From assembly GCA_944324665.1 (NCBI GenBank), contig CALUXD010000001.1, positions 310,001-374,000 of the forward strand: 64,000 nt of DNA, written 5' to 3'. Shown here piece after piece: positions 10,682 to 13,043 of this stretch (the first letter of the stretch is position 1; every line of letters begins with the position of its first letter). A program made the translations under genes and the position numbers. The DNA is from Candidatus Proelusimicrobium volucris (GTDB lineage Bacteria; Elusimicrobiota; Elusimicrobia; Elusimicrobiales; Elusimicrobiaceae). Below the pieces are notes generated by a model that did not search any database, was not told where the DNA came from, and saw nothing but the letters and a program-made list of their open reading frames with translations.

Positions 10682-10707
10682 CCGGCTTTTTAAAAAGCCG
10701 GTTTTTT
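10682..10707 (+). terminator. Terminator of the DAP operon
   Basis: A perfect palindrome CCGGCTTTTT/AAAAAGCCGG (10682-10701) is followed by six T, just after the Mur ligase stop. The central A/T bases make the loop. Confidence 0.85.
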
Positions 10708-10762
10708 GAGTGTGATATTTTATCTTGCCAAGTGTAGTATTAATGAAGGCGGTTAAGTTATT

Positions 10763-11266
10763 ATGGATTTTGACGCTGTTTACAAAGAAATGTTCAAGCC
10801 CGTTTACGCTTATGTATTGTTGCGCGCGCAAGACGAGAATCTGGCGCAAGATTTGGCGTCAAAGACTTGGCAGAAAGTATTTGACAGACAAGATTCTTAC
10901 GACCCGCGCAAAGGAAATTTGCGTCAATGGCTTTTTACGATAGCCAGAAACGAGGTAAACAGCTATTTCCGCCTATATTACGTCAGGAAGGTTCTTTCGC
11001 TTTCCGCTTTTGAAGAGGACTTTAAAAACACCGACGATAACCCGGAAACAACGGCGGAACAAAAAGATTTAGAAGAAAAACTGAAGCTGGCGATGGGAAA
11101 ACTGAAAAGCAATTACCGCGATATTTTGGCTTTAAAGTTCTATTCCGGAATGTCAAACGAAGAAATCGCCCAAATGCTTAATATCAGCGCAAGCAATGCA
11201 GGCACCATAATTAACAGAGCGGTAAACAAATTAAGGATTTTATTGGAGGCGGAACATGTCGCCTGA
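10763..11266 (+). CDS. ECF-type RNA polymerase sigma factor
   Basis: 167 residues with sigma region 2 (YVLLRAQDENLAQDLASKTWQKVF, and GNLRQWLFTIARNEVNSYFR for -10 binding) and region 4 (about 105-160) containing the helix-turn-helix MSNEEIAQMLNISASNAGTI. There is no sigma 1.1 or region 3, so it belongs to the extracytoplasmic-function group. It overlaps by 11 bases a single-pass membrane protein and is followed by a thioredoxin-CcdA fusion, forming a three-gene unit. By analogy with ECF systems the second protein would hold it inactive and the third may be its target or stress output. A GGCGG ribosome site is about 15 bases before the ATG. Confidence 0.9.
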   Translation: MDFDAVYKEMFKPVYAYVLLRAQDENLAQDLASKTWQKVFDRQDSYDPRKGNLRQWLFTIARNEVNSYFRLYYVRKVLSLSAFEEDFKNTDDNPETTAEQKDLEEKLKLAMGKLKSNYRDILALKFYSGMSNEEIAQMLNISASNAGTIINRAVNKLRILLEAEHVA

Positions 11267-11741
11267 AGAAAAAATAGAACAGTTATATAAAAATGCGGAT
11301 TTCGATAAAAAAGGCTTTGCCCAAAATAAGGTTTACGCAAAGATCCATAAACGCAAAAGCGGGGCCCGCGCCTTATGGCTTATGGCCGGTGCGGCCGCCA
11401 TTTTTGCCGCGCTTGTGTTCTGGCCCAGAACGGCTGCTATCCAAAAGGGCAAAGCTCAACTCCCAGTCTATCAAGACACTGAAGTAACCCAAGAAGAGTG
11501 CATTGACCTTTCCACCAGATATTGGTTTGAACAGGCGGCCGAGCAAGGCAAACTGATAATGGCAAAATGCCCCAAAGAAGTATTGAACGAATATAACAAC
11601 AATTTAATTTACAGTTTAAACCAAAAGTTGGAGCAATCCAATCAAAAACTGACTCGGGCGGAAAAGAAAAAACTTGACGACTGCGGAGAAAAATTTAAAA
11701 TGAACGTACATCCCATAATGTCTTACGATGTGCGCTGTTAG
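11256..11741 (+). CDS. Single-pass membrane protein with four periplasmic cysteines, candidate anti-sigma factor
   Basis: 161 residues. A basic cytosolic segment of about 37 residues is followed by one membrane helix (38-56) and a roughly 100-residue outer part with four cysteines (82, 105, 143 and the final residue 161) and coiled-coil-like charge patterns at 118-145. I recognise no family and no zinc-binding HxxxCxxC motif. Its overlap with an ECF sigma gene and its cytosol-membrane-periplasm layout fit an anti-sigma factor, and the cysteines could report thiol redox state. The role is inferred from context; it may instead be a substrate or partner of the disulfide reductase encoded 10 bases downstream. 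Confidence 0.65.
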   Translation: MSPEEKIEQLYKNADFDKKGFAQNKVYAKIHKRKSGARALWLMAGAAAIFAALVFWPRTAAIQKGKAQLPVYQDTEVTQEECIDLSTRYWFEQAAEQGKLIMAKCPKEVLNEYNNNLIYSLNQKLEQSNQKLTRAEKKKLDDCGEKFKMNVHPIMSYDVRC

Positions 11742-11751
11742 GAGAAAAATA

Positions 11752-12999
11752 ATGTTAAAAAAAATCTTATTGCTTACGATATTCGCTTTAAGCGCTTTAA
11801 ATTTTTCGGCTTTTGCCGAACAAACCAAAACGCTTGAAGCCGCATTGTTTACCGCGCCTTGGTGCGGGCACTGCCAAAGACTTAAAAAAGAGTATCTAAA
11901 CGAGTTTAAGGAACAATACAAAGATACGGTAAAACTCGTGGAATATGATATAAGCCAAGCGGGCGTAAACATAATCTTTAATGATACCATTACGGAATAC
12001 GGAATTGACGTCAATTCCGCAGGCGTACCTTGTTTAGTCGTGGGAAAAAGCGTTTTAATGGGATATCCCTCCGACATTAAAACAGGCGTCGACGCCGCCA
12101 TAAAAAAAGCGCTCGCAAACAATGAGAGGACTTACTTTGGCACAAAAGCATATATAGAACAATGCAAGAATGAAGATCTTAACGCCGAAACGCAAAGCGC
12201 GGCCTCTTGCGAGAATGACGATATCGCGCCAAGCGTAAGCAAAGAAGATACTTTAAATATGTTTGAACAAATCACCTTCTGGGCCATAATAGCGGCGGGT
12301 TTGATAGACGGCGTTAACCCCTGCGCTTTTGCGGTAATAGTATTTTTCGTTTCCTTTCTGGCGGTATACAAATACGAAAGGAAAGAAGTCATTTTAGTAG
12401 GCTCGGCCTATTGTTTGGCGGTATTCCTGGCTTATATAGCCATAGGATTGGGTTTATTCAACTTCCTTTATGCGATGAGTTCTTTTTATTACGTAATGAT
12501 GATTTTTAAATGGCTGACAATAGCGCTGTGCGCACTGTTTTTACTGCTCAGTTTGTATGACTTTATAATTTATCAGAAAACGAAAGACCACAATAAAATA
12601 TTGCTCCAGCTGCCAAAGAGTTATAAAGAATATATCCACAAAGTTATGCGTTTCTTCTTGAGGGACAAGCAGAAAAGCACGATAAGGCTGGTATTGGCGG
12701 CCTTGGCCGTAGGCTTTGTGGTATCATTGGTGGAAGCCGTATGTACAGGGCAAGTATATTTGCCGACGATAGCGCTGATCCTAAAAGAAGCGGATGCCCA
12801 TTTTATCAGAGCTATGCTCTATCTAATAATATACAATCTGATGTTCATAGTACCGCTGATAGTGATTTTGGCTTTAAGCGTAATGGGCTATGAATCCAAA
12901 GGGTTTAATGATTTCCTAAAGAAGCACCTGGGCCTTACCAAGCTGGCTTTATGTTTACTGTTCTTGGGTCTGTTGATACTGCTTATAACAAATATGTAG
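11752..12999 (+). CDS. Thioredoxin-domain/CcdA-DsbD-type transmembrane thiol-disulfide reductase fusion
   Basis: 415 residues from the ATG behind the GGAG ribosome site; an upstream in-frame start would lie inside the previous gene. Order: signal peptide (1-22), thioredoxin fold with CGHC at 38-41 and the cis-proline loop GVPC (91-94), a linker with two further cysteines (138, 153), then a membrane domain of six or so helices. Cys191 in NPCAFAV and Cys331 in AVCTGQVY are placed like the redox pair of CcdA/DsbD, which carries electrons across the membrane. It therefore probably moves reducing power from cytosolic thioredoxin to its own outer thioredoxin domain. It ends with a terminator and closes the sigma-factor unit. 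Confidence 0.85.
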   Translation: MLKKILLLTIFALSALNFSAFAEQTKTLEAALFTAPWCGHCQRLKKEYLNEFKEQYKDTVKLVEYDISQAGVNIIFNDTITEYGIDVNSAGVPCLVVGKSVLMGYPSDIKTGVDAAIKKALANNERTYFGTKAYIEQCKNEDLNAETQSAASCENDDIAPSVSKEDTLNMFEQITFWAIIAAGLIDGVNPCAFAVIVFFVSFLAVYKYERKEVILVGSAYCLAVFLAYIAIGLGLFNFLYAMSSFYYVMMIFKWLTIALCALFLLLSLYDFIIYQKTKDHNKILLQLPKSYKEYIHKVMRFFLRDKQKSTIRLVLAALAVGFVVSLVEAVCTGQVYLPTIALILKEADAHFIRAMLYLIIYNLMFIVPLIVILALSVMGYESKGFNDFLKKHLGLTKLALCLLFLGLLILLITNM

Positions 13000-13018: not shown

Positions 13019-13043
13019 CCCCCGACGCAAGTCGGGGGTTTTT
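13019..13043 (+). terminator. Terminator after the thioredoxin-CcdA gene
   Basis: Stem CCCCCGAC/GTCGGGGG (13019-13026, 13031-13038) with GCAA tetraloop and TTTTTG run. Confidence 0.9.

What the first reader, a model, noticed from the sequence alone, without database searches (positions are those of the whole stretch)
10763..12999. ECF sigma factor, a four-cysteine single-pass protein and a thioredoxin-CcdA fusion in one unit: possible periplasmic thiol-redox stress system
The sigma gene overlaps by 11 bases a gene for a cytosol-membrane-periplasm protein whose outer part has four Cys and no known anti-sigma motif. Ten bases later comes a fusion of a periplasmic thioredoxin domain (CGHC) with a CcdA/DsbD-type membrane domain (Cys191/Cys331). 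The layout suggests that oxidised outer cysteines release the sigma factor, which induces its own reductase. The individual families are known; this combination is not one I recognise.
Basis: inference. Interest (0 to 1): 0.6.

Follow-up and report, generated by a model that had tools for sequence, protein, structure and literature searches.

The report
Self-contained bacterial thiol-stress gene switch
Three neighbouring genes in a gut bacterium of the little-studied phylum Elusimicrobiota look like a complete switch in which cysteines on a membrane protein, outside the membrane, sense oxidation or a similar insult, release a gene activator held inside, and so switch on the enzyme that repairs the damage; the principle is known from proteobacteria, but this sensor protein family is new.

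Summary
An ECF sigma gene (10763-11266), a single-pass protein with four outer cysteines (11256-11741) and an N-terminal thioredoxin / C-terminal CcdA-like fusion (11752-12999) form one unit with its own promoter and flanking terminators. The order sigma - Cys-rich single-pass protein - Trx-CcdA is conserved in at least 34 Elusimicrobiaceae genomes of two genera. The four cysteines are invariant between the genera in the alignable type, although the proteins share only about 20-25% identity. The outer part always ends in Cys and is 7.6% Cys overall, against 0.7% inside. The N-terminal 37 residues are homologous to the N-termini of other membrane proteins (vWA type and others) that also directly follow sister sigma genes, so they are very probably the sigma-binding module of a short, unrecognised anti-sigma family. 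All 33 operons with upstream DNA carry a conserved ECF-type promoter (TGTGAY-N18-TART). In the window's genome it occurs once, so the operon is probably its own only target. I favour thiol/oxidative sensing with feedback by the operon's own reductase. Rivals are thiophilic-metal sensing and proteolytic release. A functional precedent exists (Bradyrhizobium EcfF-OsrA inducing CcdA plus thioredoxin), with an unrelated anti-sigma factor. New variant of a known kind.

The parts
10682..10701 (.). Terminator-like hairpin (could act in both directions) between the upstream Mur-ligase-like gene and the unit
   Evidence: Fold -17.2 kcal/mol, z -4.9, followed by a T run
10711..10740 (+). ECF-type promoter TGTGATAT-N16-TAGTAT, predicted target of the sigma factor itself
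   Evidence: Motif TGTGAY-N18-TART upstream of sigma in 33 of 33 operons, shuffled expectation 0.02; the stricter pattern is unique in this genome; related element upstream of vWA-type sister sigma genes
10763..11266 (+). ECF sigma factor, 167 aa
   Evidence: Pfam PF04542 and PF08281 above cut-off; nearest solved structures include CnrH 4cxf E 2.7e-8
11256..11741 (+). Predicted single-pass transmembrane anti-sigma factor with four outer cysteines, 161 aa
   Evidence: Counterpart present between sigma and Trx-CcdA in all 33 other operons read
11256..11366 (+). Predicted sigma-binding module, residues 1-37 (helix, DFD motif, helix)
   Evidence: Profile of these N-termini finds N-termini of proteins that follow sister sigma genes, E 4e-9 to 1e-3; best of 2000 shuffles 0.38
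11370..11426 (+). Transmembrane segment, about residues 39-57
   Evidence: Mean hydropathy 1.9 over 19 residues
11427..11738 (+). Outer sensor part with Cys82, Cys105, Cys143 and C-terminal Cys161 (codons at 11499, 11568, 11682, 11736)
   Evidence: Four Cys invariant between two genera; outer part homologous to a secreted protein of a related sigma operon (E 3.5e-11)
11752..12999 (+). Signal/anchor + thioredoxin domain (CGHC at 11863-11874) + six-helix CcdA-like domain (Cys191 at 12322, Cys331 at 12742), 415 aa
   Evidence: C38, C41, P93, C191, C331 invariant in an alignment of 23 and one of 18; thioredoxin fold in model; DsbD_TM, DsbD and ArsG family matches in relatives
13019..13038 (+). Intrinsic terminator of the unit
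   Evidence: 8-bp GC-rich stem plus TTTTTGTTTT, z -3.3

Best explanation
A self-contained ECF sigma / anti-sigma / effector circuit. At rest the short cytosolic N-terminus of the middle protein holds the sigma factor at the membrane. When the periplasm becomes thiol-oxidising (oxygen, peroxide, disulfide-forming compounds), the outer cysteines form disulfides, or change existing ones, and the sigma factor is let go, either by a conformational change or by regulated proteolysis of the anti-sigma factor. The sigma factor then transcribes its own operon from the promoter at 10711-10740, raising Trx-CcdA. CcdA carries electrons from cytosolic thioredoxin across the membrane to the outer thioredoxin domain, which reduces periplasmic disulfides. 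It may also reduce the sensor's own disulfides and so reset the switch. Shown by sequence comparison: the operon, its conservation, the conserved Cys, the shared sigma-adjacent module, the conserved and unique promoter. Inferred: sigma binding, redox chemistry of the sensor, direction of the switch, reset by Trx-CcdA.
For: Gene order in at least 34 genomes of two genera. Four Cys invariant between genera; the outer part always ends in Cys, with 7.6% Cys against 0.7% inside. The N-terminal module is shared with other sigma-adjacent membrane proteins. Promoter conserved in 33/33 operons and, in four genomes of the genus, found only at the operon apart from one chance-level hit. Trx-CcdA keeps all catalytic Cys. 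The window's genome has no DsbA or VKOR by Pfam search, so outer thiols are not obviously oxidised by default. Functional precedent: Bradyrhizobium EcfF-OsrA, where a periplasm-facing Cys is needed for the H2O2 response and a CcdA-like protein plus a membrane-anchored thioredoxin are among the strongest targets (PMC3420878).
Against: No experiment on this system. The structure model of the middle protein is weak (pLDDT 65.5) and gives no information on disulfides. Outer parts differ greatly in number and spacing of Cys (4 to about 10), which also suits metal binding. Several relatives keep Trx-CcdA without sigma and sensor. The membrane domain scores nearer the ArsG permease model than DsbD_TM.
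Confidence: 0.6

Rival explanations
1. Thiophilic metal or metalloid sensor: the outer cysteines bind a soft metal ion (Cu, Cd, Zn, As), which releases the sigma factor; the membrane fusion protects thiols against the metal or exports it.
For: High and variable Cys content with CxC and CxxC pairs in relatives. CcdA-like domain matches NCBIfam ArsG efflux permease in 17 of 18 relatives, though far below cut-off in the window protein. Caulobacter NrsF with two periplasmic Cys responds to Cr and Cd (PMC3511200).
Against: No metal transporter or chaperone of a known kind in the unit. The effector keeps a complete electron-transfer set (CxxC, cis-Pro, C191, C331), invariant in all relatives aligned. 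The window's version has only four single Cys without CxxC.
Confidence: 0.18
2. Redox-independent sensor: the anti-sigma factor is removed by regulated intramembrane proteolysis after a general envelope signal; the cysteines only make structural disulfides of the outer domain, and Trx-CcdA acts as their folding factor.
For: Single-pass topology and short cytosolic domain suit regulated proteolysis; an RseP-like site-2 protease is in the genome. Related sigma operons carry vWA or RYWA outer domains, mostly without Cys sets, so the ancestral signal need not be redox.
Against: Only the operons with Trx-CcdA have the Cys-rich outer domain, and the two stay together in all 33 other operons read.
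Confidence: 0.15
3. The middle protein is not an anti-sigma factor but a thiol substrate or electron-transfer partner of Trx-CcdA, and the sigma factor is controlled otherwise.
For: No known anti-sigma domain is detected; the N-terminal profile finds nothing in the PDB.
Against: Its N-terminal module tracks the sigma genes, not Trx-CcdA: it recurs in front of vWA domains next to sister sigmas that have no Trx-CcdA. Its start codon overlaps or abuts the sigma stop codon in the operons read.
Confidence: 0.07

Closest known systems
Bradyrhizobium EcfF-OsrA / Caulobacter SigF-NrsF (ECF group 16)
   Same: ECF sigma, membrane anti-sigma factor with functionally required conserved Cys, H2O2 or metal inducible; in Bradyrhizobium autoregulated, and a CcdA-like protein (Bll1027) and a membrane-anchored periplasmic thioredoxin (Bll1026) are top targets (PMC3420878, PMC3511200)
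   Different: The anti-sigma factor is a six-TM DUF1109 protein with two Cys, not a single-pass protein with four; Trx and CcdA are separate genes; regulon includes Met-sulfoxide reductases; another promoter (GTAAC)
Mycobacterium SigK-RskA with dipZ in the regulon
   Same: ECF sigma with an anti-sigma factor and a CcdA-family gene (dipZ) under the sigma factor (stated in PMC9861118)
   Different: dipZ is not in the sigma operon; DipZ has its Trx-like domain C-terminal and RskA a class I type anti-sigma domain (own knowledge)
Streptomyces SigR-RsrA
   Same: Sigma factor released on oxidation of the anti-sigma factor and controlling the thioredoxin system (PMC4960319 and its references)
   Different: Cytosolic zinc-binding anti-sigma factor; cytosolic thioredoxin; no membrane sensor
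CnrH-CnrY (class II anti-sigma factor)
   Same: Very short two-helix cytosolic sigma-binding segment (described in PMC7406223); CnrH is among the nearest solved sigma structures
   Different: No detectable sequence similarity to any PDB chain, CnrY included; the sensor CnrX is a separate protein and the signal is a metal (own knowledge)

Membership tests
ECF sigma factors | Regions 2 and 4 only, no region 3 | tested here: met
   PF04542 at 11-70 and PF08281 at 105-157 of 167 aa, both above cut-off
ECF sigma factors | Own promoter with ECF-type -35/-10 recognised by the sigma factor | tested here: inconclusive
   Conserved unique promoter found; recognition by this sigma not tested
ECF anti-sigma factors, class I (ASDI, including zinc type) | Class I anti-sigma domain (about 100 residues on average), often with a zinc motif | tested here: not met
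   Cytosolic part is only about 37 residues; no Pfam or NCBIfam anti-sigma hit above cut-off
Class II anti-sigma factors (CnrY-like) | Short two-helix segment that wraps the sigma factor | tested here: inconclusive
   Length and predicted helices fit but low confidence and no sequence match to CnrY
DUF1109 / NrsF-OsrA anti-sigma factors | Six TM helices, DUF1109 domain | tested here: not met
   One TM segment, no DUF1109 hit
CcdA/DsbD membrane electron carriers | Six-helix core with one redox Cys each in TM1 and TM4 | tested here: met
   C191 and C331 invariant, in predicted helices 190-204 and 310-345
CcdA/DsbD membrane electron carriers | Match to DsbD_TM / CcdA profile | tested here: inconclusive
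   Window protein none; DsbD_TM in 3 of 18 relatives, best 0.0018; DsbD equivalog in one at 1e-6
Periplasmic thioredoxins | Thioredoxin fold, CxxC and cis-Pro loop, outside the membrane | tested here: met
   PF00085 E 4e-8; C38, C41, P93 invariant; fold matches thioredoxins. Location outside the membrane is inferred from the N-terminal hydrophobic helix, not tested
ArsG efflux permeases | NCBIfam NF040495 above 200 bits | tested here: not met
   24 bits

The most novel reading that the evidence does not exclude
A new family of single-pass redox-sensing anti-sigma factors in Elusimicrobiaceae: one constant 37-residue sigma-binding module with an exchangeable outer part that, in some lineages, became a fast-diversifying Cys-rich sensor coupled in one operon to its own transmembrane reductase. 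This would be a self-resetting periplasmic thiol gauge in anaerobes without DsbA and VKOR.
Probability: 0.5. Interest if true: 0.6.

Novelty: new variant of a known kind. Interest (0 to 1): 0.48.

Why it matters
How strict anaerobes without a standard disulfide-forming system watch the redox state of their cell envelope is poorly known. This operon gives a testable minimal circuit (sensor, regulator, effector and promoter within 2.3 kb) in a phylum for which the paper search found no paper that also speaks of ECF and anti-sigma factors. It also shows a sigma-binding module re-used with different outer sensors, which could help annotate many orphan ECF sigma factors.

Tried and rejected
(1) Filing the middle protein under RsiV (NCBIfam E 0.04), RskA_C or DUF2624: all weak and far below cut-off. 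(2) A sigma-70 promoter for the unit: the scan finds no more sites than shuffles and none upstream of the sigma gene. (3) A wider regulon: strict and relaxed promoter patterns find only the operon itself in G000; the extra two-mismatch hit in G017 is at control level. (4) One single origin of the Trx-linked sigma genes: the best tree puts them in two groups (0 of 200 bootstraps with one clade), but the AU test does not reject one clade (p 0.18), so the origin is left open. (5) PDB fold and sequence search of the middle protein and its N-terminus: nothing. (6) A model of sigma bound to the N-terminus could not be made with the single-chain tool. (7) Omnitrophota carry the Trx-CcdA fusion but no sigma next to it in the loci read.

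Full report
What is there. A strong hairpin with a T run separates the unit from the upstream Mur-ligase-like gene, and an intrinsic terminator follows it at 13019-13038. The unit is therefore self-contained.

Where it is. The genome is 1.5 Mb in 4 contigs, 99.7% complete. Named records with relatives of the fusion belong to Elusimicrobiota (Elusimicrobiaceae, uncultured Elusimicrobium, Candidatus Avelusimicrobium), many of them rumen or gut metagenome assemblies by their titles. One same-family genome is a single contig of 1,643,562 bp, which I take from memory to be Elusimicrobium minutum.

Conservation of the order. In a search of 341 genomes of the phylum, a close sigma and a Trx-CcdA lie within 3 kb on one strand in at least 34 genomes, all in two genera of the family (the lists were cut, so this is a lower bound). 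In all 33 other operons read, one ORF of 136-165 aa starts over or at the sigma stop codon and ends just before Trx-CcdA. In several relatives (for example G004, G003, G014, G001, G010) Trx-CcdA directly follows the same Mur-ligase-like gene with no sigma or sensor gene. The regulator pair is thus a cassette that is present or absent at an otherwise constant place.

The middle protein. It has a short basic N-terminus, one membrane segment and an outer part. Between the two genera the alignable proteins share about 20-25% identity, yet Cys82, Cys105, Cys143 and the very last residue Cys161 are all invariant. Over all 34 proteins the last residue is always Cys; the part after residue 60 has 7.6% Cys and the first 38 residues 0.7%. 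In the second genus the outer part falls into several sequence types with more Cys (up to 11 in the whole protein). When all types are aligned together only the last Cys stays invariant and Cys82 and Cys105 nearly so, so the exact four-Cys set belongs to the RYW/RYL type. The outer part of the window's protein is homologous to part of a secreted protein encoded in another sigma operon of the same order (E 3.5e-11).

Why it is probably the anti-sigma factor. Sister sigma genes in the same family are directly followed by other membrane proteins: mostly large proteins with vWF_A/VWA/YfbK domains, or a small membrane protein plus a secreted RYWA protein. A profile of the N-terminal 45 residues of the middle proteins recognises the N-termini of these other proteins at E 4e-9 to 1e-3, whereas the best of 2000 shuffled controls is 0.38. 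The common core is helix - (D/N)(F/Y/L)D - helix. A module that follows the sigma gene while everything else in the protein changes is what a sigma-binding domain should look like. It has no Pfam, NCBIfam or PDB match. [quoted passage not shown] this is a resemblance only.

The promoter. All 33 operons with upstream DNA have TGTGAY-N18-TART just before the sigma gene; shuffles give 0.02 per 33. The window's copy is 10711-10740. A closely similar element stands before most vWA-type sister sigma genes and before sigma genes of a distant family, so it is the promoter type of this sigma clade. In the four genomes of the window's genus that carry the operon, the pattern with up to two mismatches finds only the operon, plus one chance-level site in G017; in 20 genomes the strict pattern finds only sites in front of sigma genes. 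The simplest reading is a dedicated, autoregulated circuit.

The effector. The thioredoxin domain (CGHC, cis-Pro) and the two membrane cysteines are invariant in alignments of 23 and 18 proteins. The model shows a thioredoxin fold and long membrane helices with C191 in the first and C331 in the fourth, as in CcdA. Profile matches of the membrane part are weak: DsbD_TM in 3 of 18, ArsG permease in 17 of 18. The order Trx then CcdA is the reverse of DipZ (own knowledge).

Mechanism and its limits. The window's genome has no DsbA or VKOR by Pfam search, while the 14-genome controls show that the searches work. A default reduced outer domain is therefore plausible and oxidation is the likely trigger. 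An RseP-like protease is present, so release could be proteolytic. None of binding, redox chemistry, trigger direction or reset has been shown.

Known counterparts. Bradyrhizobium EcfF-OsrA is the closest in logic: autoregulated, H2O2-induced, a periplasm-facing Cys needed for the response, and a CcdA-like protein with a membrane-anchored thioredoxin among the top targets (PMC3420878). Caulobacter SigF-NrsF shows the same type of sensor for chromium and cadmium (PMC3511200). In both, the anti-sigma factor is a six-TM protein of another family. The present case is therefore a new variant of a known kind.

History. Sigma factors linked to Trx-CcdA fall in two groups on the tree; a single clade is not rejected (AU p 0.18). 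The linked Trx-CcdA proteins form, with some unlinked ones, one well-supported branch. Whether the cassette arose once or twice is open.

Noticed in passing
L019, L020, L024, L031, L032, L084, L085, L087, L093: Sister ECF sigma genes are directly followed by a membrane protein in which the same N-terminal sigma-binding-like module is fused to vWF_A/VWA/YfbK_C domains: an apparent transmembrane anti-sigma factor with a von Willebrand sensor.
   Followed up: partly
L083, L088, L094, L147, L152, L153: A family of secreted proteins with repeated RYWA...NW...LDE domains, no Pfam family, sits third in sigma / small TM protein operons of Elusimicrobiota; the Cys-bearing sensor of the window is related to it.
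   Followed up: partly
L086 / L126 (G010): The Trx-CcdA fusion appears split by a frame change between the thioredoxin and CcdA parts, directly after the Mur-ligase-like gene, with no sigma or sensor; sequencing error or real split not decided.
   Followed up: no
L213-L235: The same N-terminal Trx / C-terminal CcdA-like fusion is common in Omnitrophota without a recognisable sigma gene next to it.
   Followed up: no
upstream of sigma in second-genus loci such as L077, L103: The -10 element lies only about 8-12 bases before the ATG, so these sigma mRNAs may be leaderless.
   Followed up: no
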